Source: Mya arenaria
Taxonomy: Eukaryota; Mollusca; Bivalvia; Myida; Myidae
Reading direction: 5' to 3'
Length of the DNA: 64,000 bases
Assembly: GCF_026914265.1 (NCBI RefSeq)
Contig: NC_069129.1
Location: 16,794,945 to 16,858,944 of the forward strand
How positions within the stretch are numbered: position 1 is the first letter of the stretch; every line of letters begins with the position of its first letter. This document shows positions 49,793 to 62,750 of the stretch, in pieces. The position numbers were made by a program, and so were the translations under genes. Below the pieces are notes generated by a model, which did no database searches, was not told where the DNA came from, and worked only from the letters and a program-made list of their open reading frames with translations.

Positions 49793-51825
49793 CTATATGG
49801 GAAAAAACTGTTGTGAAATCCTGTTAAACGCATGAATAGATAACATCCATTCTGTATTGTCGTGAAATACTCTACTTTCTCTACCTGCAAGGTAACTATC
49901 TTTGCCTGGTACATGCTCAGCTGTTAGCCACATATTATGCTCACAGGCATATTCCCAAATTACACGTGCAATATCATTGCATTGTTTTGATCGGATACCC
50001 CCATGTGATTGATGCATGCAACTGCCGTAGAATTTTCAACTCTTACTCTGATGTGCTTATCTTTTAGGCGCAATGTATAAGCCTTTAACCCAAGTATCAC
50101 AGCGTTTAGTTCTAAATTATTGATATTGTCTTTAAAAGAAGCTTGAGCTACAGTCCACTGGCCACCTGTACTGTTATCTTTACATACTGCCCCCATCCGT
50201 TTGAAGAGGCATCGGTTGTCAGTGAGATCACTGGAATGTCCATGTAAAGAGGCGCCTCGCTGTACTTGACAGCTCATAACCACCAGTCTAGATCATTCAG
50301 AAATTCAGCACTTAAATTCATCTGGGAATCAAAATTGCCTTTATTATATTTCAAAGCACTTGTTTTATCCTGTTCTAAATATTTTGTGTAAAGTATCTCA
50401 TAAGGTATTGCAATATTATACGAAATCATTTTCAATAAAGCTGACCTCTCCATATAAATCTCAAATAATTCCTAAATTCCTCGGATACGTTCACGGTATA
50501 ATATGCATCTTTTAAATATCGACTCCAGAAACAACCAGGTGTTATAAGCCGCATAGCCGCATGTAAACTTTCCATTTCAAAATGTATGTACTCGATTGAC
50601 TCATTAAGAGATTTTAAGTTTAATATCACTCTGTATGAACCATTAGATTTTGGCCGTAAAAACACTGCCGAGATAAATTCCGCCACCATAATGCTCTGCA
50701 GTCTCTATTACGCCTTAAAGTAAAATACTCTCTGTTTCTCCATCCAGCACTAGTGTCTTTTTTTGAATTTAATTTAGTTTCACGTACACGAGACTGATTT
50801 GGCCTGTCAATAAAGTCTATGGTACAGCAGTGAAAAGTGTCTAAAATATTATTGTTAGTGGTCAGTTGTTCACATTGGGTACCGAAATGCTTTCGTCTGC
50901 CTGCTTATTTAATGGCATGTTGTTTGGGAGTCGCACTGAACTGTCCCCTGTGCGATCCTCTTCGGGGATATCCCCTCCCCCTCTGTGTTTGAGGATAACG
51001 CGGTGGATACGATCGTTATCCTAAAAAAGAACCTGATTTCCGGAAGGCACGGTGTTTCGTGTAATGTGTCTGTCTGAATTTCCCTGCACGTACTTTAAAT
51101 CCAATTTTGTTTGGTTCAGTTAACGATTCCAGCTGATCAATGATATTGTCCCCGAATAACATCTGTGTGACAGGATTCGTAATGGAACATTTGGCCTGAT
51201 ATTCCTCGTTCAAGTCGCGCTTGTTTTATTCCCGCCTGCAGTCATTAGCATCTGCATTTCCCACGGCAGTCAATACTTTGGCATCCACCGATTTTGTAAC
51301 AAGTTCATCAAAATTCACACTCTCCTGGCAATCCCGTCCTGCAACCAAACTATCAATCACCTGCATGATCGGCACCATAGCTCTGAGTGCGAACTGCTGG
51401 ATCTTTTGAAGCATTACGTCTTAAGAACGCGTTTTCGCTTCAATTATTCTCCATATTTCAGGATTTACTTGAGGGGGATTCAACTTCGTGACGTTTTCTG
51501 CCACGGGGTTCTTATCTGCCAAATCACTCCGTTTTTTGTCTTGCATTTTCTTGTCAATGATATTGTTTGTCAAACAGGCCAAATGTCCCGAAACTGGTGA
51601 GCCTTTAGCTTCACTCAATGACAAAGCCGCGCAATGCACTCAAATATAACAGCCACCGTAACTGGCTGGCTGCAGCTGGCCTGGTCAGCGACATCAGGCG
51701 TTGGCATTGAGGAAGACTCATCTTCACTCTCATCGCATGATTCATGCATTTGTTTGCGAAGTCAATCTACGTCTGGCTTCAAATGCGCGAAAAATTGCAT
51801 CATCTCTTGCATTTATGCGACGACC
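49793..51825 (-). mobile_element. Inactive DIRS-like retrotransposon
   Basis: On the minus strand, from high to low coordinate: a gag-like region (about 51820-51016) with 'PIMQVIDSLVA' and 'NFDELVTKSVDAKVL'; a reverse transcriptase start (50689-50432) with 'FLRPKSNGSYRVILNLKSLN' and 'FLRFIWRGQLY'; and an RNase H region (about 50283-49850) with 'LELNAVILGLKAY', 'DIARVIWEYACEHN' and 'HVPGKDS'. These match DIRS-type elements in order. Between 'RGQLY' and the next recognisable piece ('KYLEQDKTSALKYNKGNFD') the palm with the catalytic YxDD is deleted, and several frameshifts separate the parts. No tyrosine recombinase or terminal repeat was seen downstream, so the copy is dead. Base composition is like its surroundings. 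Confidence 0.82.
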
Positions 51826-52228: not shown

Positions 52229-52437
52229 ATGGCGAACGTTCAGGTAAAGGACATCCGAAAAGATAAACGTAAACAGAATTATGATTCATGTAAGGCTGCT
52301 CTTGATCAAACAGGCGAGGCCTTGTTGCCTTTTACGGAGGACAAGCTCAAGGATTTACATCAGCAAATCTCACTACAAGTCGGAAATCAACCTGTTTGTC
52401 ACCAGCAATGCAGTAAGGTTATGCGAGATGTCAACAG
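52229..52437 (+). CDS. HEPN-STAND-ankyrin gene, exon 1
   Basis: 69 codons plus two bases. The donor is CAACAG|GTAAGA. AG joins A of the next exon as an Arg codon. It codes for the N-terminal helical part of the CXorf38-like domain, ending 'CSKVMRDVNR'. Confidence 0.82.
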
Positions 52438-55400
52438 GTAAGACTTTTTGCATTGCTCTATTGTGTACATCTCTACGGTTATATGATACAAATATTGACT
52501 AGGGAGCCAACGAAAATGATCTGATATTTAATGGCAGAAAACCATAAAAAATTATTTATTTAATAACACAGGGTTATTTGTATATCTTAATTCACCATGG
52601 ATTCTTACGAACACAAATAATCAGCAAAAGTCTTCTTTGACTGATATAATTTCTTGGAAAACGTCCATTTATACGTACATTGGAAGTAGTACGGAAATGA
52701 CGTAACTTGATTTGTACCAGCTTTGTTTGTAATTGCTGAGATGTATATCAATGAGGTGCTATTTATAGATTATGAATGTTAGAAGGGAAAACCCCAATCC
52801 CATGATATATGAGATATAGTGCCGATTGCTCTGAAGTTACTGAAAGTTATAAACCTTCGTAACGTCATCGTTGTTAAATTTTAAATATTTACTAGTGTGA
52901 AAGGAAACACTTGTAATTTTCGTTTTTTTTCGAACAAGGTTCCCCACGGAGATGGAAGGGGATTATAGGAATGCACTTCGTCCGTCTGTCAGTCTGTCTG
53001 TCTGTCCGTCTGTCCGTCTGGCTGTAACATTTCGTATCCGGACTATAACTTACATGGATGGATTACCATATTACTTGGTACAAATGTTGCCCTCATTGAT
53101 ACGATGTGCAGTGACCTTGACCCGGGTCCATACCTCAAAGGTCAAGGTCACACGGGACATTTAAAGGTCAGAGTACACATGCTCGTGTCCGCGCTATAAC
53201 TTACTTATGCATTGATGGATTACCATATTTCTTGGTACAAATGTTGTCCTCATTGATATGATGTGCAGTGACCTTGTATAGATAAATTCACGTTTAAAGT
53301 TAACAACGGTAGCGTTAACAACGTTGTTAACTAAACCAGTTCTGAACAATCCGCCCATTTATCACATGCTTACCCTTGTTTTCCGTGTAATATACCCATT
53401 ACGAATATTTTTATCTTACACATGTGTAAGATAACATATCAGACATTTCTATTGGCTAGACTAATCACACGCGACCTAGATATCCCTCCGCATTGTTTGT
53501 AAACAAAATGGTTTAAACGCCAACAAATACTAACCTCAATAATGAAGCGGAAGGACTTCCGGGAGACAAATGGCTTACGAATCATAGTGCCAGAAAGCAT
53601 CTTGTTCGAAAACTTTCTGATAACAATGTTCCGCCAACCAGATAATGCAGATTACTAGTCACAGAAATATCCAGTCAGTCAACAAATACAGCCACATTAG
53701 TGACAAACAACACGAGAACATTTCAAACATCTCCATCTTAACAGGCAATATGCGACCAATGCCATAAAATTTGCTTGCCAGTTTAATCAGCTGTCGGTTA
53801 CCAAAACACAAATACGAATTCCGCAGCACAGGTTTCTCATCACACGTACGTCCCAAGACGGTAAGAACAGCTTGTTCTCTGGAAACATTCTTGATGGAAC
53901 TTTTTCAACATCAACATCCATGCAGTGCAGAGTAAGGCTTCGTCGTAATCATCTGCATGTTGTTAAAATCCATGTCCACTAAGAAAACGCAGTCATCGTC
54001 ATCGTAGAAAGCGACAGCGAATAACTTTTAAATCCGTGCACACAGTAGAACTTGACAGACGATGTAGGTCACATAAACCGCGTAAAAGCATGTACTCTCA
54101 GTGTGACGTCATCAAGTTGTGTACTTATTGTGTTTTAATGGTTAAAATTGTTCGTTATTCATGTTGTTCGATATTTTACTACACATGTTTATACTTGTGA
54201 CTTGTTCAGCGCTTTATCAGAATAAAAACTTGATAACTGCTAGCTGTTTTTGTCATTTTCATTTGGAACTATTTATATGGCGCATCGTTGACATTCCACT
54301 CAGTGTACTTTGGCTGTCAAACAATGGGTTTAGAAAGTGGAATGTGGAACTAAATTGGTAATAAAAACACCGTTTTAAGCATGTGATAAAAAAGATCTGA
54401 CACTCGTTGTCATTTTATACAAGATTTTTATTAAACTCGTCCATGAAAGTTGTTAGTAAGCTCGCCAGAGGCTCGCTTACTAACAAATTTCATGAACTCG
54501 TTTAATAAAATCTTGTATTAAATGACAACTCGTGTCAGATCCTATATATCTTGCTTCACCGAATGTGTTCTTGAAAAATGAGAAACTGAATATTCATATC
54601 TTCTTTTAATTGCTTTTGCGCGGAGAAAAAGGGTAATCATAACATAAAAGTAAACAAAGCCGATACATTTTAAGCTTCCTTATTACCAGTAGTTTATGAT
54701 ATGTAATGAAAAACATTTGAATTTACAGATGGTGCATCACCTGTGGATTGTGGAGACAAGCGTTGTTACGTTTTCATACAAATCCGAGGGAACTGGTATG
54801 GCATAAGCTTCAATCATGGGAATGGCCAAAGCATCACATGAACCTAGTTGAAGTATATATGTGGCAAAATTGGGGTAAAGCTGATATGAATGCGAGTGAT
54901 TTATCAGTGGCATTGACGGTGTGGAGAAAGTGTTCAGTCTTTCCTGCCACAATATTGCCTTTGGCTGATAAACTTAAAAAGAGCAGAAACAAGATAGCTC
55001 ATGGAAAATCGCTAGATGAAAACGAAAAACAAACTGTATTTAATAACATAAAGCAGGTTATTCAACACGCAGATGTGGTTAAGTGCTTACAGAATCCCAA
55101 CGAAATACTAAAAATTATCACCGACCTTGAAAATGGTAATCTTTTTAAATCTGAAAATCGTACTATTCATTGGATTTTCATTGCAGCGTGCATCATTGTG
55201 CCAATTGCACTGTTTCAACCAGGGATTATTATTTATTGTTTATCGATGATCTTCAGTAGACCACAAATCCAATCATCAATGGAAAAAACGGGTCAGGTTA
55301 TTTTTCTTTACATCATTTCATTTACATTATCGAATTAATTCCTTAGATCATTTTAAAGTATAAACACAATCTTTTACACAAAGTTATGTATTAAAAGTAT

Positions 55401-58400
55401 ATTTTTCAACATTTAACGATAACAATAAAAATAAGTAACGTTTTACAGGCTGTCTGCAGGAGTATTCGCCTTTGCTTCCAACATCGCCGCTACTTGTAGA
55501 TTATTTCAAACAGCATGGACCTCTCGTTGGCCGGGGATGGCTGTTTCAGTTATTGGATGAACATCTGAATAATACCAAGAAAAACGGCATTCTACTCGAA
55601 GCTGGGATGGGGTACGGGAAATCTGCTATTGCTGCTCACATTACATGTGCCAAAGAGGGTGATCAAGGTATGGAAATGAGGAAACGTCTTATTGCTTTTC
55701 ATGTTTGTAAATTTGATGTCAAGAAAACACACCAGGCAGGAGTCTTCATTCAACGACTAGTTTCAATGATCTCAAACAATATTCCAGAATTTAACGATAC
55801 TATTAACGACTGTTTACATTCCTTCAATACCGAGCAATGCGATTCCGACCCATTTGGTTGCATAGATGAATGTATCATTTTCCCCTTAAAACAAACGAAT
55901 ATATCCGATGAAAGAAAAGGAAACAGGCTTATTTTAATCGATGCTTTGGATGAATGCTATGGAACATTTTTGTTTGAAAAAAGTAACAAATTGTTCAATC
56001 TCATTGAACGCCGTGCACATATGCTGCCAAGTTGGATAAAGTTACTGGTAACGAGTAAAAGGCTATCACGTAATGAGAGACTTGAATATAATTTAGACAG
56101 AATTTACTTTCATAACCTTGAACCCCGGAATTTAAATGACATTGATCTATATTTCAACCAGTCTAATGCTTCTAGAGAAAAGAGCGTCACGTTTTTCCAG
56201 CTTGCCGTTAATGCAGATCCTACACAGCCAAACCAAATGAGCGATTTGAATAGCTATTATAGAGACCAGTTTGATAGATGGTATGACCACGGGTTTGATT
56301 TGTCAAAATCCATTTTGGAAGCGTTGTTGACAACCTCTCTTCAGAAATATCCGGACAATATAAGAAAAGTGATTTCATCAAATGTCGTCCACAGTGTATC
56401 ACCTCCGATATTTGAAAAGGAGCTTTCCATTATACGACAGTTCACAGACAAAGTTAATGGCGAAATTGAGTTCAAACATTTTTCGTTAGTTATGTGGCTG
56501 CTAGAAAAGTGCCCCCGTGAGTACAGACTTTCCCTTTCTGATGGCCATCAAGCAAATGCGCATTATATTCTGTATGAACTAAACACATCTAATATAACTT
56601 TTGATGTCACAGATTTACTTTTACACATACATTATGCTAAAGCGGATTCAGGTCTACACGAAGAATTCATAAACATACCGAAACATGTCATCTTTAAAAT
56701 GGAGGAGAAATTTCATGAAGGACCTGTGGTAAGAATAATTAAAAAAGGAAAAATGAAAGAAATACCGGAGGTATTGTTCCATCACTTTCCAGGGGGCAAT
56801 CACTTTAGTGCTGAAAACATTTCAGTGGGGTTTATTGCTGCAGAAAACGGATATACTTACGCTTTAAAACAACTGGTAAATCACGATGCGGATATACACT
56901 TTCGCATGCCAACGTTTTCAAATATATTAACGATGCATGACGCTGTAGAGATAGCAACTAATTTTAAGCACTGGAATTATGGGTTGCTAGACATAGCAGC
57001 ACAAAACGGACATACAGACACAGTCAAACTAATTTTACACGATGATTTATTCTCCTTTTATAAGTTACATGAACGAAACGGATTAAACCTCTCACCATGG
57101 CATCTTGCTTGCATGTTTAATCGTAGTGAAGTGGTTGAAGTGTTTTTGCAGTTCAATCGCTCATTTGTTGACTGGAAATGTTTGTACTTTGCAGCTGAAA
57201 AGGGCAATATTGTAATCGTAAAACTCCTTTTGGATGCAGGTATTTATGACGAATGTGTGTTATGCACAAATAAATTATACTGGATTCCAGATGGCACAGC
57301 TAGAGTACAAGGAAATATGATCCCTGAAAACGATTCGATGTACGTTCTCTTTGATGACTGGAGCGAATTGGCATGTGAATCCGCCTTACATGCAGCTATT
57401 CGACAAAATCACCTAAATGTTGTAAGGGAGTTGTTGAAGGACAGCCAGCATTCAACGCTTCATTGTTTTGACCGAGGGGGTCGCCCTGCTTTGATCGCTG
57501 CACTTCAAAATAATCGTACTGAAATGGTTAGACTTTTCCTTCAAGTGAGTAACGCGCACAGAATAAAAGTACAATGCCATAAAATGGCGGTGTTAGAAGA
57601 CAATATACAAATACACAACATAGAATTGGTAAAAATGAACACTATGAAATGCAAAGCCGGACACGGTATTGAGCACGCCATTTCACCGATGCCTGTGGTA
57701 TTACAAAACATATTTGATCATACAAAGTTTGACTTTAACCGAAGAGACGAAGACGATTGTTTACCAATCCATTATGCCGCCTGTGGAAACAACGTTGAAT
57801 ATCTTCAATTTTTACTGCAACGTCATGAGATGTTGTTTGAAACACTTATTTGCTTTAATAACACAAACGCCTTCCATTCAACGATTCACTGTAGAGCATT
57901 TGGTACCTTCATTTACTTTATTAATAATGACACGTTGTCTAAGTCCAGTTTTGGACAAAATTTTAAAGAATATGTGTTGTACCTGCTCAAACTGTTAAAT
58001 AACCAAGAAGAATACGCAAATAACGCCACTGACAAAATATGGAGTGAAATGTTCAAACTTATGATTGAAAAGTTTCACGTTGATATTTCAATGATGGTAG
58101 ATGATGACGGCAACAATATGCTTCATTACATCGTAAAGAACGGACATTTTAAATTACTTAAATATCTGGTAGCAAAGAAGCGCGATGCCACTTTGGAGTT
58201 ATTGCACAGAAGTTCATTAAACGGAAAGTCACAAATTACATATTTAGCAAAATACATGGCTAAGCGCATGTATGTCCGAACTGGAATACCTTTATATACA
58301 AGTCCACATTCAAGCCCACATTCAGTTCAACAAGAACAGAAAAAGCTATCGTCGAGTGAATACTGTTTTTCACTAATATCGCGTTTTTTGAATCAATACG

Positions 58401-60388
58401 GGATGTTTAAAAGTGAAGACAAGATTACCATTATGCAACAATTACTTCGAAGAAAAAGTTATAATTTAGTTGACGTTTATCTTAAGTATATCATTCCAGT
58501 AGATGAATTATTCAAGACAACTGTGTTTGCTACTTTTCTGGACTTCGACAACACTGGGTATGTAACTACAAACTATCTGTCGTTTCTTCTTCATGACATC
58601 AAAATGCAACAGAAGATTGACTTTGAAAGATATGAATTTGTCCATTGTTCCACATGTCAAGATCTACGTTACAAATGCTTAGCACATCAGTTTACACGTA
58701 AAATTGCCCTTTTTCAAGGAAATTTGAATATCCATTTCGGTGAGGTACAGGAAATGATATATCGTAATGTATTTAAACGTATGATTGCATATACAGATAC
58801 AAGTATCTTATCATCTTGTGTGGATCAACAGGGTTTGAATATTTTAGAGTTGGCTATAAACAGGAAATCCTTAATGTTGATGACATTGTTTAGGGACAAA
58901 GGTGTTCAAACTAAATCTCCTGAAGAACTCTTACTCCGCTCCTTTAAGGCGAACGATCATATTGAAAAAATACCAGTTACTTTATTGAATTCCACATCTC
59001 TGCAGTCGGTAGATCTGGTAGATATTCATTTCCATACACATGAACAAATCGTGCAAATATTTAACACAACTACGAAAAAGGGTAAACAAGGTAACGCCGA
59101 GTTATTGTCCCTTATGATGCAAAACGATATACACCTTCTTAACATTGCATGTGTTCTCCGGGAAAGACATGACCATTTTTACGCTAGTTTTATTGGTATA
59201 TATAGCTCAAAACTATCGAAACTTTTTATTTGCATGGATCGTTCAGCGAACTTCTCTCTGATTCACGTGTTGGCTCTACATGGCTATTCGAACACTATTG
59301 AAAGATGCGTGAAGTACTTCGGAAGAAATATTCTTGACTGTTTAAATATTGATCATTTTACGCCATTATATTTGTCCAAAGTTTATGACAAGACAAATAC
59401 AACATTTAACACTATTTTAGAAAACAGTCCCAATAAACATCTCACATTTCCTAGAAAACCAGCCGAAAAGCATTTTCTATATAACCTTGTTACCCAATTC
59501 TATTTTTCGAAAGGCGAACACCGAAAGGCACTGTGCTATTTGCGATATTTAAATAGACCAAAAATGAACATTTATAAAACTATAAAACAGTATAGGTGTT
59601 TTAAATCAATTACGCAATACATTATCACACCTAAATCCTATCAGCTATTTCTAAAAGATCTTAAGCTTAAACTGATTGAGCGTTCTTTAAACGAACTTCG
59701 CCAGTCGTTTTTAGACAAAATGAATGATTTGAAGGTATCCAATGCTCTTGTCTCTGTTCCAGTTAAGCAAGAAACACCTGTAAGCTTATCAAACATGATG
59801 AAACTCAAACGTTTCATATGCATTCACTATATGCATAATTATAAACAATGTTTAATTCGAAGAAATATAAAAGTTTTGTTACAAACCAAACCGGATGGTT
59901 TTACCTCTTTTGATAAGTATATCATCAGACTGACTCTTTCAAATCGGTTTGAATACATTTGTAAATATCACATGGACGATTATGAATCTGAAATGTTTCG
60001 CACAAAACAATCATCTCAGAGTTGCGTCACCAAACATTTATTCAAACGGTTTTGTATTGATCCAACGATATATTTTCAGAAATTTCTTTTAAGAAAAGAA
60101 TACATACACTCGCCTGACTTTGAAACATCATTTTCCGGACAAAGATTTAGACAAGTATTCCGTAATACAAACGAGTTTAAGATTTTTTCCGATAATGAAG
60201 TATATAAATACAAATATATGGATGCTTTTAGATACTATCCAATTGTTAAATTTTCTTTTCAGTATAGTATAACAGATCACCATAAAAAGATATTTCCTAA
60301 TTTTGAATATATTAACTCGTCTATGAGTAGTGAATTAGTACGCAATGCCTATACTAAGTTCAAAAACGCACAGGGCGGCGAATATTGA
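52229..60388 (+). CDS. HEPN (CXorf38-like) - STAND NTPase - ankyrin-repeat protein
   Basis: Three exons (52229-52437, 54729-about 55296, about 55460-60388) code for about 1,900 residues. Residues 1-215 match the CXorf38/DUF4559 layout: an N-terminal helical part, 'CGLWRQALLRFHTN', 'SWEWP', and then a helix with RNKIAH (156-161). The last is the RX4H motif of HEPN ribonucleases. Residues 217-246 are strongly hydrophobic, possibly one or two membrane helices. Next is 'GPLVGRGWLFQLL', Walker A GMGYGKS (about 308-314), Walker B LILIDALDE (about 416-424) and 'LLVTSKR', as in ANKRD50/TANC-type STAND NTPases. Ankyrin-like units run from about 715 to 1550 ('LLDIAAQNGHTDTVKLIL', 'SALHAAIRQNHLNVVRELL'). 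The last 350 residues are unassigned and basic. The plan is that of an NLR-like receptor; the immune role is an inference. Confidence 0.85.
52975..53285. repeat. GTCTGTCC microsatellite joined to a dispersed element (intron 1)
   Basis: (GTCTGTCC)-type units at 52982-53020 run into a body in which 'gattaccatatttcttggta' and 'gatgtgcagtgaccttg' occur twice, about 165 bp apart. It includes 'caaaggtcaaggtcac'. It is related to the element at 14080. Confidence 0.65.
53411..53434. repeat. Perfect 24-bp palindrome
   Basis: TTATCTTACACA followed by its exact reverse complement. It lies between the dispersed element and the Crypton remnant. Confidence 0.85.
53515..53735 (+). mobile_element. Crypton-type tyrosine recombinase remnant
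   Basis: On the plus strand one frame reads 'LTNHSARKHLVRKLSDNNVP' (about 53571-53630). After a frameshift the next reads 'HRNIQSVNKYSHISDKQHEN' (about 53655-53715). Together these are the C-terminal catalytic block of Crypton/DUF3504-type tyrosine recombinases, with the HSxRK, (G)HKN and active-site Tyr regions in order. A stop and a frameshift interrupt it, and GH reads SH, so it is inactive. It lies in intron 1 of the HEPN-STAND-ankyrin gene. Confidence 0.7.
54394..54541. repeat. Long fold-back hairpin in intron 1
   Basis: Two arms of about 70 bp are near-perfect reverse complements, from GATCTGACAC...TAAGCTCGC to GCTCGCTTAC...GTGTCAGATC, around a centre near 54467. A related TTTATCACATGCTTA is present inverted at 53359 and near 54375-54390, so the hairpin may be one end of a larger element that encloses the Crypton remnant. 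Confidence 0.85.
54729..55296 (+). CDS. HEPN-STAND-ankyrin gene, exon 2 (HEPN core and hydrophobic segment)
   Basis: Acceptor ATTTACAG|ATGG. It opens with 'WCITCGLWRQ', the CXorf38-type continuation of exon 1. It contains RNKIAH and the hydrophobic stretch 'WIFIAACIIVPIALF'. Two donors fit the phase of exon 3: CAG|GTTATT (end 55296, with exon 3 from 55460) or ACGG|GTCAGG (end 55291, with exon 3 from 55449). The choice changes two residues only. Reading on without splicing reaches a stop at 55336-55338, so an intron-retaining transcript would encode a truncated HEPN-plus-hydrophobic protein. Confidence 0.8.
55460..60388 (+). CDS. HEPN-STAND-ankyrin gene, exon 3 (NTPase and ankyrin repeats)
   Basis: One uninterrupted exon of about 4.9 kb to a TGA stop. 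The alternative start at 55449 uses the better pyrimidine tract (GTTTTACAG|GC). It codes for the whole NTPase, the linker ('NGEIEFKHFSLVMWLLEK' is typical of the end of the STAND helical region), at least ten ankyrin-like units and the C-terminal tail. No frameshift or stop interrupts it, so it appears under selection. Confidence 0.92.
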   Translation, partial: EYSPLLPTSPLLVDYFKQHGPLVGRGWLFQLLDEHLNNTKKNGILLEAGMGYGKSAIAAHITCAKEGDQGMEMRKRLIAFHVCKFDVKKTHQAGVFIQRLVSMISNNIPEFNDTINDCLHSFNTEQCDSDPFGCIDECIIFPLKQTNISDERKGNRLILIDALDECYGTFLFEKSNKLFNLIERRAHMLPSWIKLLVTSKRLSRNERLEYNLDRIYFHNLEPRNLNDIDLYFNQSNASREKSVTFFQLAVNADPTQPNQMSDLNSYYRDQFDRWYDHGFDLSKSILEALLTTSLQKYPDNIRKVISSNVVHSVSPPIFEKELSIIRQFTDKVNGEIEFKHFSLVMWLLEKCPREYRLSLSDGHQANAHYILYELNTSNITFDVTDLLLHIHYAKADSGLHEEFINIPKHVIFKMEEKFHEGPVVRIIKKGKMKEIPEVLFHHFPGGNHFSAENISVGFIAAENGYTYALKQLVNHDADIHFRMPTFSNILTMHDAVEIATNFKHWNYGLLDIAAQNGHTDTVKLILHDDLFSFYKLHERNGLNLSPWHLACMFNRSEVVEVFLQFNRSFVDWKCLYFAAEKGNIVIVKLLLDAGIYDECVLCTNKLYWIPDGTARVQGNMIPENDSMYVLFDDWSELACESALHAAIRQNHLNVVRELLKDSQHSTLHCFDRGGRPALIAALQNNRTEMVRLFLQVSNAHRIKVQCHKMAVLEDNIQIHNIELVKMNTMKCKAGHGIEHAISPMPVVLQNIFDHTKFDFNRRDEDDCLPIHYAACGNNVEYLQFLLQRHEMLFETLICFNNTNAFHSTIHCRAFGTFIYFINNDTLSKSSFGQNFKEYVLYLLKLLNNQEEYANNATDKIWSEMFKLMIEKFHVDISMMVDDDGNNMLHYIVKNGHFKLLKYLVAKKRDATLELLHRSSLNGKSQITYLAKYMAKRMYVRTGIPLYTSPHSSPHSVQQEQKKLSSSEYCFSLISRFLNQYGMFKSEDKITIMQQLLRRKSYNLVDVYLKYIIPVDELFKTTVFATFLDFDNTGYVTTNYLSFLLHDIKMQQKIDFERYEFVHCSTCQDLRYKCLAHQFTRKIALFQGNLNIHFGEVQEMIYRNVFKRMIAYTDTSILSSCVDQQGLNILELAINRKSLMLMTLFRDKGVQTKSPEELLLRSFKANDHIEKIPVTLLNSTSLQSVDLVDIHFHTHEQIVQIFNTTTKKGKQGNAELLSLMMQNDIHLLNIACVLRERHDHFYASFIGIYSSKLSKLFICMDRSANFSLIHVLALHGYSNTIERCVKYFGRNILDCLNIDHFTPLYLSKVYDKTNTTFNTILENSPNKHLTFPRKPAEKHFLYNLVTQFYFSKGEHRKALCYLRYLNRPKMNIYKTIKQYRCFKSITQYIITPKSYQLFLKDLKLKLIERSLNELRQSFLDKMNDLKVSNALVSVPVKQETPVSLSNMMKLKRFICIHYMHNYKQCLIRRNIKVLLQTKPDGFTSFDKYIIRLTLSNRFEYICKYHMDDYESEMFRTKQSSQSCVTKHLFKRFCIDPTIYFQKFLLRKEYIHSPDFETSFSGQRFRQVFRNTNEFKIFSDNEVYKYKYMDAFRYYPIVKFSFQYSITDHHKKIFPNFEYINSSMSSELVRNAYTKFKNAQGGEY

Positions 60389-60539: not shown

Positions 60540-62750
60540 TTAAACTATGTTTGCTGTCATCTGATGAGTGTCCTATCGTATGTGTTATTTATCATGATTA
60601 TGTTTGCTGTCATCTGATGAGTGTCCTATCTCTTGTGTTATTTATCATGGTTTAACTATGTTTGCTATCAACCGATAAGTGTCCTATCATATGTGTTATT
60701 AATGATGATTACAGATGCACTATTACTCCCAATAAGAATTACCATCTTAAATACAATCGTTTTAATTTACCAAAAAAGGTTTGTAAATGTCAAAACAATG
60801 GTTCTTATGAAGGACACTGCGTTTAATTTGAAAGAAAGGTGTAGAAAACACGGTATTTGTCCATATGTGCATGATTTCGTAATAACTAAAAGGTTTATCA
60901 CTCAAACTTTATGTTTGTTATACATGTGTTTGAATTGATTTTGAATAAAAGTGTCACTTTAAATTATGTCTGCTGTCATCTTAATCGTGTCCTATCTTTG
61001 CTGTCACTGATGAGTGTCCTTTATCGTATGTGTTATTCATCATGATTAACTATGTTCGCTGTCATCTGATGAGTTTTCTATCTCATGTGTTATCTATCCT
61101 GATTAAACTATGTTTTCTGTCATCTAATGAGTGTCCTATCTCATATGCTAATTATCATGATTAAACTATGTTTTTTGTCATCTAATGAGTGTCCTATATC
61201 ATGTGCTATTTATCATGATTAAATTATGTTTTCGGTCATCTAATGAGTGTCCTATCGTATGTGTTATTTATCCTGATTAAACTATGTTTTCTGTCATCTA
61301 ATGAGTGTCCTATCATATGTGTTATTTATCATGATTAAACTATGTTTACTGTCATCTAATAAATGTCCTATCTCACGATATTTCATCATGATTAGACTAT
61401 GTTTACTGTCATTCTATGAGTGTCCTACCTCATTTGTTATTGCTCATGATTAAACTATGTTTGCTGTCATCTGATGAGTGTCCTATCTCATGTGCTTTTT
61501 GTCATGATTAAACTATGCTTGCTGTCATCTGATGAGTGTCCTATCTCATGTGCTATTTATCATTATTTAACTATTTTTGCGGCCATCTGATGGATCTTAC
61601 GGTTATTCATCATGATTAAACTATGTTTACTGTCATCTTATGAGTGTCTTACCTCATTTGTTATTTATCATGATTAAACTAGGTTTGCTGTCAACTGATA
61701 AATGTCCTTTCACGTGTGCTATTTGTCATGATTAAACTATGTTTGCTATCATCTGACGAGTGCCCTATCTCATGTGTTATTTATCATGATTAAATTATGT
61801 TTGCTGTCATCTGGTGAGTGTTCTATCGAATGTGTTATTTATCATGATTAAACTATGTTTGCTGTTATCTGACGAGTGTTCTATCTCATGTGTTATTTAT
61901 CATGATTAAACTATGTTTGCTGTCATCTGATGAGTGTTCCACCTCATTTGATATTGATCATGATTAAACTATGTTTGCTGTTATCTGATGAGTGTCCTTC
62001 CTCATGTGTTGTTTATCATGATTAATCTTTGTTTCCTGTCATCAGATGTGTGTTCTTTCTTAAGATTTTTTTACCATGATTAAACATGTTTATATTGTTG
62101 TCAACTGATAAGTGTCCTATCTTACGATTTATTTATCATTAGTAAACTATGTTTGCTTTCAACTGTAAGTGTCCTATCTTACGAGTAATATATCATGATT
62201 CTACTATGTTTGCTGTCAACTTATAAGTGTCTTACCTTATTTGTTATTTACCGTGATTAAGGTATGTTATGAGGAATGTCCTATATCATGTGTTATTCAT
62301 CACGATTAAACTATGTTTGCTGTCATTTGATAAGTGTGCTATTGTATGTGTTATTTATCATGATTTATCTATGTTTGCTGTACTTATGTATTTCCTATCT
62401 TACGAGTTATTTATCATGATTAAACTATGTTTACTGTTAACTAATGAGTGTCCTATCTTACGAGTTATTTATCATGATTAAACTATGTTTACTGTTAACT
62501 AATGAGTGTCCTATCTTACGAGTTATTTATCATGATTAAACTATGTTTACTGTTAACTAATGAGTGTCCTATCTTACGAGTTATTTATCATGATTAAACT
62601 ATGTTTACTGTTAACTAATGAGTGTCCTATCTTACGAGTTATTTATCATGATTAAACTATGTTTACTGTTAACTAATGAGTGTCCTATCTTACGAGTTAT
62701 TTATCTTGATTAAGCTATGCTTGCAGACTTCAGATGAGTGTCCTTAACTG
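60540..62750. repeat. 58-bp satellite array downstream of the HEPN-STAND-ankyrin gene
   Basis: About 35-38 tandem units built on CATGATTAAACTATGTTTGC, TGTCATCTGATGAGTGTCC and TATCTCATGTGTTATTTAT. Most units differ by several bases. The units at about 62405-62700 are nearly identical to one another, a recently amplified block. A family A MITE interrupts the array at 60713-60958. Each unit has ATTAAA, so the array could supply poly(A) signals for the upstream gene. Confidence 0.95.
60713..60958. mobile_element. TTAA-flanked MITE, family A, copy 5 (internally deleted)
   Basis: 246 bp from AGATGCACTA to GTGTCACT, followed by TTAA (60959-60962). The left flank reads TTAC. The middle is shortened compared with the 360-bp copies. 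It inserted into the 58-bp array. Confidence 0.8.

What the first reader, a model, noticed from the sequence alone, without database searches (positions are those of the whole stretch)
52229..60388. HEPN - hydrophobic segment - STAND NTPase - ankyrin protein: a candidate animal immune receptor with a ribonuclease-type effector
Seen: RNKIAH (RX4H), Walker A GMGYGKS, Walker B LILIDALDE and many ankyrin-like units in one three-exon gene. Known: STAND proteins such as NLRs pair an effector, a nucleotide switch and a repeat sensor. HEPN domains act as RNases in RNase L (ankyrin plus HEPN) and in many prokaryotic defence systems. Inferred: ligand sensing by the ankyrin region could trigger NTP-dependent oligomerisation and HEPN activity. 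The module order is the reverse of RNase L, and it joins a CXorf38-like domain, whose human function is poorly known, to a receptor chassis.
Basis: partly seen in the sequence, partly recalled or inferred. Interest (0 to 1): 0.85.

Follow-up and report, generated by a model that had tools for sequence, protein, structure and literature searches.

The report
Membrane-anchored clam receptor with ribonuclease domain
A softshell-clam gene encodes a large, probably membrane-anchored, immune-receptor-like protein whose ATP-switch and ankyrin sensor may lie outside the cytoplasm while its predicted RNA-cutting domain lies inside, a layout it shares with relatives in mussels and stony corals.

Summary
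The window is softshell clam (Mya arenaria) contig C8; an NCBI gene model (LOC128242309 isoform X2) equals the window's three-exon translation when exon 2 ends at 55135. HEPN (DUF4559/CXorf38 family, RNKIAH), STAND NTPase and ankyrins are real. The idea is not new: CXorf38-HEPN/NACHT/ankyrin fusions with a defence role were predicted in 2013 (PMC3710099), and 45 of 99 Corbicula NLRP genes carry DUF4559 (PMC8298618).

New here is the membrane. Of 19 proteins examined, 17 have a hydrophobic peak above KD 1.6 between HEPN and STAND (the other two 1.46), in bivalves and stony corals and with two HEPN families. K/R flanks (more on the HEPN side in 16, fewer in 0) and covarying cysteines on the STAND-ankyrin side suggest HEPN in the cytosol and STAND-ankyrin outside it: an inside-out NLR with Ire1-like topology. 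Net charge opposes this in 4 of 19, the clam protein included; sequon enrichment failed its control; the X2 model lacks the segment. The gene belongs to a clustered family (26 loci). Topology, RNase activity and immune role are inferred. New variant of a known kind.

The parts
52229..52437 (+). exon 1: start codon, first HEPN helices and first half of the zinc ribbon
   Evidence: NCBI protein P0001 equals the window translation; donor CAG|GTAAGA
54729..55135 (+). exon 2 as in NCBI isoform X2 (no transmembrane segment)
   Evidence: exact match to P0001; donor ATG|GTAATC
54729..55291 (+). exon 2, long form with transmembrane segment (presumed isoform X1, not seen)
   Evidence: donor CGG|GTCAGG; same MEKTG junction in protein P0002; open frame through MEKTG in 5 of 7 other loci delivered
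55449..60388 (+). exon 3: STAND NTPase, expected winged-helix region, ankyrin repeats, C-terminal part, stop
   Evidence: 1,645-codon open frame, equals P0001
52268..55068 (+). HEPN domain of the DUF4559/CXorf38 family (residues 14-183, interrupted by intron 1)
   Evidence: Pfam DUF4559 4.6e-12, 46.5 bits, cut-off 27; AF2 pLDDT 89.6
54985..55002 (+). RX4H motif RNKIAH, predicted RNase active site
   Evidence: R156, N157, H161 invariant in 13 of 13
52397..54744 (+). zinc ribbon inserted in HEPN (C57, C61, C72, C75; spans intron 1)
   Evidence: C57, C61, C75 invariant in 13 of 13; metal binding not tested
55156..55257 (+). transmembrane segment, long form only (X1 residues 213-246)
   Evidence: KD peak 2.42; peak above 1.6 at this place in 17 of 19 proteins examined, 1.46 in the other two
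55562..56056 (+). STAND NTPase core (NPHP3_N)
   Evidence: Pfam 2.6e-13
55604..55624 (+). Walker A GMGYGKS
   Evidence: G, G, K invariant in 33 of 33 aligned
55928..55954 (+). Walker B LILIDALDE
   Evidence: D, E invariant in 33 of 33 aligned
56990..58186 (+). span of the best-scoring ankyrin stretches
   Evidence: Pfam Ank_2/Ank_4/Ank_3/Ank best stretches lie in residues 514-912 of the exon-3 protein

Best explanation
A single-pass membrane receptor. Shown: one gene with CXorf38-type HEPN, a hydrophobic segment, NPHP3-type STAND NTPase and ankyrin repeats, in a clustered clam family, with the same order in Mercenaria, Mytilus and stony-coral homologues. Supported but not proven: a type II orientation, with HEPN and its zinc ribbon in the cytosol and STAND-ankyrin in the ER lumen or outside the cell, held by disulfides. 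Inferred: a ligand at the ankyrin/C-terminal region releases the NTP switch, the outer parts oligomerise, and the cytosolic HEPN domains are brought together as an active metal-independent endoRNase that cuts RNA and arrests or kills the cell, as Ire1 passes a luminal signal to its RNase. Splicing at 55135 would give a soluble version.
For: Gene model equals an NCBI protein. HEPN: DUF4559 over cut-off in the clam protein and matched in 13 of 13 relatives at E up to 1; HEPN_Swt1 in 7 of 13, best 1.5e-5; CARF-HEPN 1.7e-5 for the clam protein; R156/N157/H161 invariant in 13 of 13. Hydrophobic peak before Walker A: 17 of 19 above KD 1.6, two at 1.46; K/R more on the HEPN side in 16, equal in 3, fewer in 0. 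Cys is 8 of 23 invariant columns in 33 sequences, and 14 columns conserved at 85% or more against 1.9 expected. Variable Cys: 8 of 19 columns have a partner with phi of at least 0.93; the highest share for another residue is His, 8 of 69, and Leu has 10 of 308. Pairs 811/848 and 760/783 agree in 33 of 33. dN/dS of the exon-2 HEPN part 0.16-0.51 in 15 pairs.
Against: The NCBI X2 model lacks the segment, so at least one model puts STAND-ankyrin with HEPN in the cytosol; X1 was not seen. Net flank charge favours N-in in 15 of 19 but opposes it in 4, among them the window's own protein. X1 also has a weaker hydrophobic stretch inside the ankyrin region (845-863, KD 1.68), and Mytilus P0015 has one inside HEPN (132-150, 1.84). 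Sequons are enriched on the STAND side (315 against 203.9 expected), but NACHT frames downstream of other DUF4559 loci, of unknown membrane status, show it too (91 against 59.0), so this is not counted. Joint Cys changes per pair are few (0-2 on the same branch), and the pairs were picked after seeing the patterns. Cytosolic STAND-ankyrin references were not compared. No solved HEPN stood out. No expression, RNase or infection data.
Confidence: 0.5

Rival explanations
1. A cytosolic NLR-like receptor: the soluble X2 form is the main product, HEPN and STAND-ankyrin share the cytosol, and the hydrophobic segment is a minor or membrane-tethering variant. This is.
For: The NCBI X2 protein equals the window without the segment; of 20 hand-picked clam DUF4559 loci, 11 showed a recognisable receptor gene within 10 kb, and 10 of these are NACHT-type rather than the present type; ankyrin and STAND proteins are usually cytosolic (general knowledge).
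Against: An open frame through the segment to MEKTG is kept in 5 of 7 other loci delivered and in protein P0002; 17 of 19 proteins examined exceed KD 1.6 there. Cys pairs covary.
Confidence: 0.28
2. Opposite topology: HEPN outside or in the lumen, STAND-ankyrin in the cytosol.
For: HEPN carries conserved cysteines too; net flank charge is against N-in in 4 of 19, the clam protein included; Mytilus P0015 has a fairly hydrophobic start (15-residue KD 1.86).
Against: K/R flanks favour N-in in 16 of 19 and never the reverse; no hydrophobic start in the clam protein (0.33) and values of 0.21-1.35 in 10 of the other 11 checked; the HEPN cysteines of the clam fit a CX3C-X10-CX2C zinc ribbon, and a zinc ribbon is described for this family (PMC3710099).
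Confidence: 0.08
3. HEPN is not a nuclease here but binds RNA or dimerises, and signalling runs through partners.
For: Some HEPN families lack the motif and are thought to bind RNA (PMC3710099); no activity data; the fold match is weak.
Against: R, N and H of the site are invariant in 13 of 13 coral and bivalve sequences, and RNxxAH is kept in 6 of 7 clam copies with a HEPN exon (window's own included), lost only in a copy with stops.
Confidence: 0.14

Closest known systems
CXorf38-family HEPN fused to NACHT, ankyrin, CARD or DEATH (Anantharaman et al. 2013, PMC3710099; passages seen)
   Same: Same HEPN family with zinc ribbon and active motif, fused to an NTPase; defence role proposed; ankyrin listed among fused domains
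   Different: Listed for vertebrates, Saccoglossus, Branchiostoma, Ciona, Nematostella; the passages shown (12 of 16 and 12 of 19 places) name no transmembrane segment in these fusions; here NPHP3_N STAND, membrane segment, bivalves and corals
DUF4559-bearing NLRP genes of Corbicula fluminea (PMC8298618; one passage seen)
   Same: 45 of 99 NACHT genes carry DUF4559 in a clam
   Different: HEPN nature, membrane segment and ankyrin layout are not discussed in the passage
DZIP3-HEPN NACHT proteins of pearl oyster and cnidarians (PMC9646362, PMC8260672; passages seen)
   Same: N-terminal HEPN on a NACHT chassis, expanded; Rx4-6H in 194 of 202 oyster DZIP3-HEPN proteins
   Different: Different HEPN family; but one search found four proteins (P0020, P0021, P0023, P0024) with DZIP3-HEPN and the same STAND-ankyrin part
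AjNLR-new of sea cucumber (PMC13133943; start of abstract and passages seen)
   Same: Membrane receptor with an extracellular NACHT, for which the paper reports experiments
   Different: Intracellular Ig, two transmembrane segments; the words HEPN and ankyrin do not occur in its text; acts on phagocytosis
Ire1 (general knowledge, and PMC3710099 passages)
   Same: Sensor outside the cytosol, one transmembrane segment, cytosolic RNase of the HEPN superfamily (KEN)
   Different: No kinase or Ire1 luminal domain found; HEPN at the N-terminus; STAND-ankyrin sensor
RNase L (general knowledge, and PMC3710099 passages)
   Same: Ankyrin sensor and HEPN-superfamily RNase in one protein
   Different: Reverse order, kinase-like domain, soluble, no STAND

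Membership tests
HEPN superfamily, CXorf38/DUF4559 family | DUF4559 profile over cut-off | tested here: met
   clam protein 46.5 bits against 27; relatives match in 13 of 13 at E up to 1, not all shown to pass the cut-off
HEPN superfamily, CXorf38/DUF4559 family | Rx4-6H motif | tested here: met
   R156, N157, H161 invariant in 13 of 13
HEPN superfamily, CXorf38/DUF4559 family | zinc ribbon inserted in HEPN | tested here: met
   C57, C61, C75 invariant in 13 of 13; metal binding itself not testable
HEPN superfamily, CXorf38/DUF4559 family | HEPN helical fold | tested here: inconclusive
HEPN superfamily, CXorf38/DUF4559 family | endoRNase activity | not testable with these tools
   needs protein
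STAND NTPase | Walker A and B, NPHP3_N profile | tested here: met
   50.9 bits against 24.8; motif residues invariant in 33 of 33
STAND NTPase | winged helix after the NTPase | tested here: inconclusive
   HTH_TANC1 over cut-off in P0003, P0005, P0006, P0007 but no hit in the window's exon 3 or in P0002
NLR in the strict sense (NACHT plus LRR) | NACHT profile over cut-off and LRRs | tested here: not met
   neither found in the window's protein at E up to 10; ankyrins instead
RNase L | ankyrins, then kinase-like domain, then KEN | tested here: not met
   no kinase hit; HEPN precedes ankyrins
Ire1 | luminal domain, transmembrane segment, kinase, KEN | tested here: not met
   only the transmembrane arrangement is shared; no kinase hit
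AjNLR-new type | intracellular Ig domain and extracellular NACHT | tested here: not met
   no Ig hit
TANC/ANKRD50-like proteins | NPHP3_N plus ankyrins without HEPN or anchor | not tested
   no TANC or ANKRD50 reference sequence was compared; two coral homologues are named ankyrin repeat domain-containing protein 50 (or 50-like) by their source

The most novel reading that the evidence does not exclude
An ancient class of inside-out NLRs: a disulfide-bonded, extracytosolic STAND-ankyrin sensor that signals through one transmembrane helix to a cytosolic HEPN ribonuclease, with interchangeable HEPN effectors (CXorf38 or DZIP3 type), shared by corals and bivalves, and in the clam switchable by splicing to a soluble form. 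It would be an immune counterpart of Ire1 built from unrelated parts.
Probability: 0.42. Interest if true: 0.84.

Novelty: new variant of a known kind. Interest (0 to 1): 0.64.

Why it matters
STAND receptors are usually thought of as cytosolic. An anchored class with the switch outside and an RNase inside would give animals a direct route from an outer or luminal signal to RNA decay. It also gives the poorly understood human CXorf38 family a testable setting: is its HEPN an RNase, and is it switched on by being brought together? The splice choice and the clam gene clusters make both topology and function open to direct tests.

Tried and rejected
Sequons: enrichment on the STAND side first looked like topology evidence, but control NACHT frames showed the same (91 observed, 49 reversed, 59.0 expected over 10 frames, several of them close paralogues; 59 against 41.8 without repeat-rich L026). 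The control is imperfect, since its membrane status is unknown and 8 of the 10 frames hold a stretch of KD 1.9 or more. Dropped as evidence.

My first exon-2 donor (55255) fitted the frame but is supported neither by the NCBI model nor by paralogues; replaced by 55135 and 55291. A first X2 attempt with 55138 failed.

A PDB sequence search with the HEPN profile gave 0 hits, and with the single HEPN sequence 3 hits, none better than E 0.11. Foldseek on the HEPN model gave no match at 0.001 or better. Searches on the whole coral model P0046 only showed ankyrins, RNase L's among them; that says nothing specific. A homology search with P0005 1-340 gave one further protein. Pairwise dN/dS by region gave no sign of positive selection in HEPN, NTPase or ankyrins; the short segment and linker (0.43-1.34) and the C-terminal part of two near-identical pairs (1.3, from rates near 0.03) are too noisy to read. 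Pfam on 5 upstream minus-strand frames gave 0 hits.
Full report
What is there. The window lies on contig C8 of a 1.2-Gb genome. The best database match is Mya arenaria LOC128242309 isoform X2, and the length of its contig, 75,813,843, equals that of C8. Exons 52229-52437, 54729-55135 and 55449-60388 translate to that protein letter for letter.

The membrane segment. I examined 19 proteins that carry sequence before the STAND part: the clam's long form and 18 relatives that I chose (Mya, Mercenaria, Mytilus, stony corals, one unnamed coral-like and four DZIP3-HEPN proteins of unnamed source; P0002 and P0007 start inside HEPN). The script takes the most hydrophobic 19 residues in the stretch before Walker A: 17 of 19 exceed KD 1.6, and two corals (P0046, P0065) reach 1.46. 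A charged, coiled-coil-like linker often precedes it (read by eye in P0005, P0006, P0027), and the P0046 model shows long helices there (196-277). In the clam the segment is coded by the end of exon 2; X2 removes it with the donor at 55135. One search delivered 8 loci with flanks, the window's own (L029) among them. Of the 7 others, 5 keep HEPN, the segment and the frame to MEKTG (L030, L032 with one stop in exon 2, L033, L034, L035); L036 has stops and has lost the histidine; L031 shows only the tail of exon 2. I take the long form to be isoform X1; X1 itself was not seen.

Which side. With one segment, HEPN and STAND-ankyrin must be on opposite sides. (1) Lysine plus arginine in 20 residues on each side: more on the HEPN side in 16 of 19, equal in 3, fewer in 0; net charge agrees in 15 and disagrees in 4, one of them the window's own protein. 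(2) Cysteine is the most over-conserved residue on the STAND-ankyrin side: 8 of 23 invariant columns in 33 sequences chosen from the searches, and 14 columns at 85% or more against 1.9 expected. (3) Among 19 variable cysteine columns, 8 have a partner with phi of at least 0.93; for the other 19 residues the share runs from 0 to 11.6% (His 8 of 69, Pro 7 of 61, Gln 8 of 70, Leu 10 of 308, Trp 0 of 13). Pairs 811/848 and 760/783 agree in 33 of 33 rows, 942/973 in 29 of 29, 1193/1222 in 27 of 27; 984/1020 in 28 of 32 and 1467/1503 in 24 of 30 (P0001 numbering). On a tree the joint changes are few: of nine pairs, picked after seeing the patterns, 811/848 and 984/1020 have 2 on the same branch, five have 1, and 942/973 and 1467/1503 have 0. 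Six pairs have a spacing of 23 to 37 residues, which would fit neighbouring ankyrin repeats. C808 and C878 stay invariant when 811 and 848 are both lost, which suits two disulfides better than one four-cysteine zinc site. (4) Sequons are enriched on that side (315 observed, 218 reversed, 203.9 expected; 26 against 38.3 on the HEPN side), but control NACHT frames show the same, so I give this no weight. The relatives are not independent of one another, and I had no cytosolic STAND-ankyrin reference. I put the type II topology at about two in three.

Family. The exon-3 protein finds 36 matches in the clam genome (28 of 100 candidates scored, so a lower bound), which I group into 26 loci: 5 at C8 16.85-17.03 Mb, 13 at C8 19.07-19.43 Mb and 8 at C6 58.35-59.78 Mb; 16 of the 26 have a match of over 1,000 residues without stops. 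Over seven copies (six for exon 2) HEPN, NTPase, winged-helix region and ankyrins are under purifying selection in the diverged pairs: HEPN dN/dS 0.16-0.51 in 15 pairs; the segment and linker run from 0.43 to 1.34; the C-terminal part is 0.52-0.62 in diverged pairs and 1.3 in two near-identical pairs where both rates are near 0.03. DUF4559 has at least 129 matches in this genome (443 candidates, 129 scored), DZIP3-HEPN 49 (89 of 89 scored), NPHP3_N 67 (150 of 163 scored). I fetched 20 DUF4559 loci of 10 kb, picked by hand to include different forms: 1 (L011) is of the present type; 10 have a long downstream frame with a shared NACHT-type lead (9 by the search pattern, L026 by eye), of which 5 were scanned and 4 reached the NACHT cut-off; in 9 I recognised no receptor within the 10 kb. 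This suggests that the present type is a minority among clam CXorf38-HEPN genes.

Relatives. DUF4559, hydrophobic segment, NPHP3_N and ankyrins occur in this order in proteins of Mercenaria (P0005), Mytilus edulis (P0025), Montipora, Acropora, Desmophyllum and Oculina. Four proteins carry DZIP3-HEPN instead on the same chassis, which points to effector exchange. Of 660 matches only the best 120 were listed, mostly without names, the named ones all corals; other phyla are not excluded.

Literature. Anantharaman et al. 2013 list CXorf38-HEPN fused to NACHT, ankyrin, CARD and DEATH and propose RNA-virus defence; the passages I saw name no membrane segment for these, but compare other membrane HEPN proteins with Ire1. 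Corbicula has 45 of 99 NACHT genes with DUF4559. Pearl oyster and cnidarians have expanded DZIP3-HEPN-NACHT genes, and corals many N-terminal DZIP3-like HEPN domains. Transmembrane NLRs are reported in sea anemones and a sponge, and an extracellular NACHT in a sea cucumber in 2026, described there as the first. In the listings (some cut to the best 12 or 20) I saw no paper describing an anchored HEPN with STAND-ankyrin on the other side; the library lacks most subscription papers and all bioRxiv preprints.

Mechanism and verdict. The parts suggest that NTP-bound STAND-ankyrin assemblies form outside the cytosol upon ligand binding and bring HEPN domains together inside, which then cut RNA. Key NTPase residues are invariant in 33 of 33, so NTP binding is probably needed; ATP is available in the ER lumen and outside damaged cells (general knowledge). 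Ligand, RNA target and immune role are inference. New variant of a known kind, with an unusual and testable topology.

Noticed in passing
G000 genome: At least 129 DUF4559/CXorf38-HEPN matches in the softshell clam genome, a lower bound (443 candidates, 129 scored); 10 of 20 loci fetched have a NACHT-type frame downstream.
   Followed up: partly
L026:1-6009 (-): A frame of 2,003 aa with NACHT followed by many LRR-like repeats very rich in cysteine (129 Cys), downstream of a DUF4559 match.
   Followed up: partly
L009, L010, L017, L028: Exon-like frames of repeated amphipathic units (ETGKREVAETAETGKQELKDVV and similar) between HEPN and NACHT, varying in number (read by eye).
   Followed up: no
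L031 (C8:16935980-16940905) and L030 (C8:19423166-19428091): Two copies with practically identical exon 3; L031 shows no HEPN exon, only the tail of exon 2, within 1.5 kb upstream.
   Followed up: no
window 49793-50904 (-): Broken minus-strand frames that look like reverse transcriptase of a DIRS-like element (read by eye, from recall; Pfam gave no hit).
   Followed up: partly
window 60992-62744: 58-bp tandem array, 30.5 copies, just downstream of the gene; shorter array at 60543-60711.
   Followed up: no
window 54420-54535: Inverted repeat inside intron 1 (read by eye), possibly a small transposable element.
   Followed up: no
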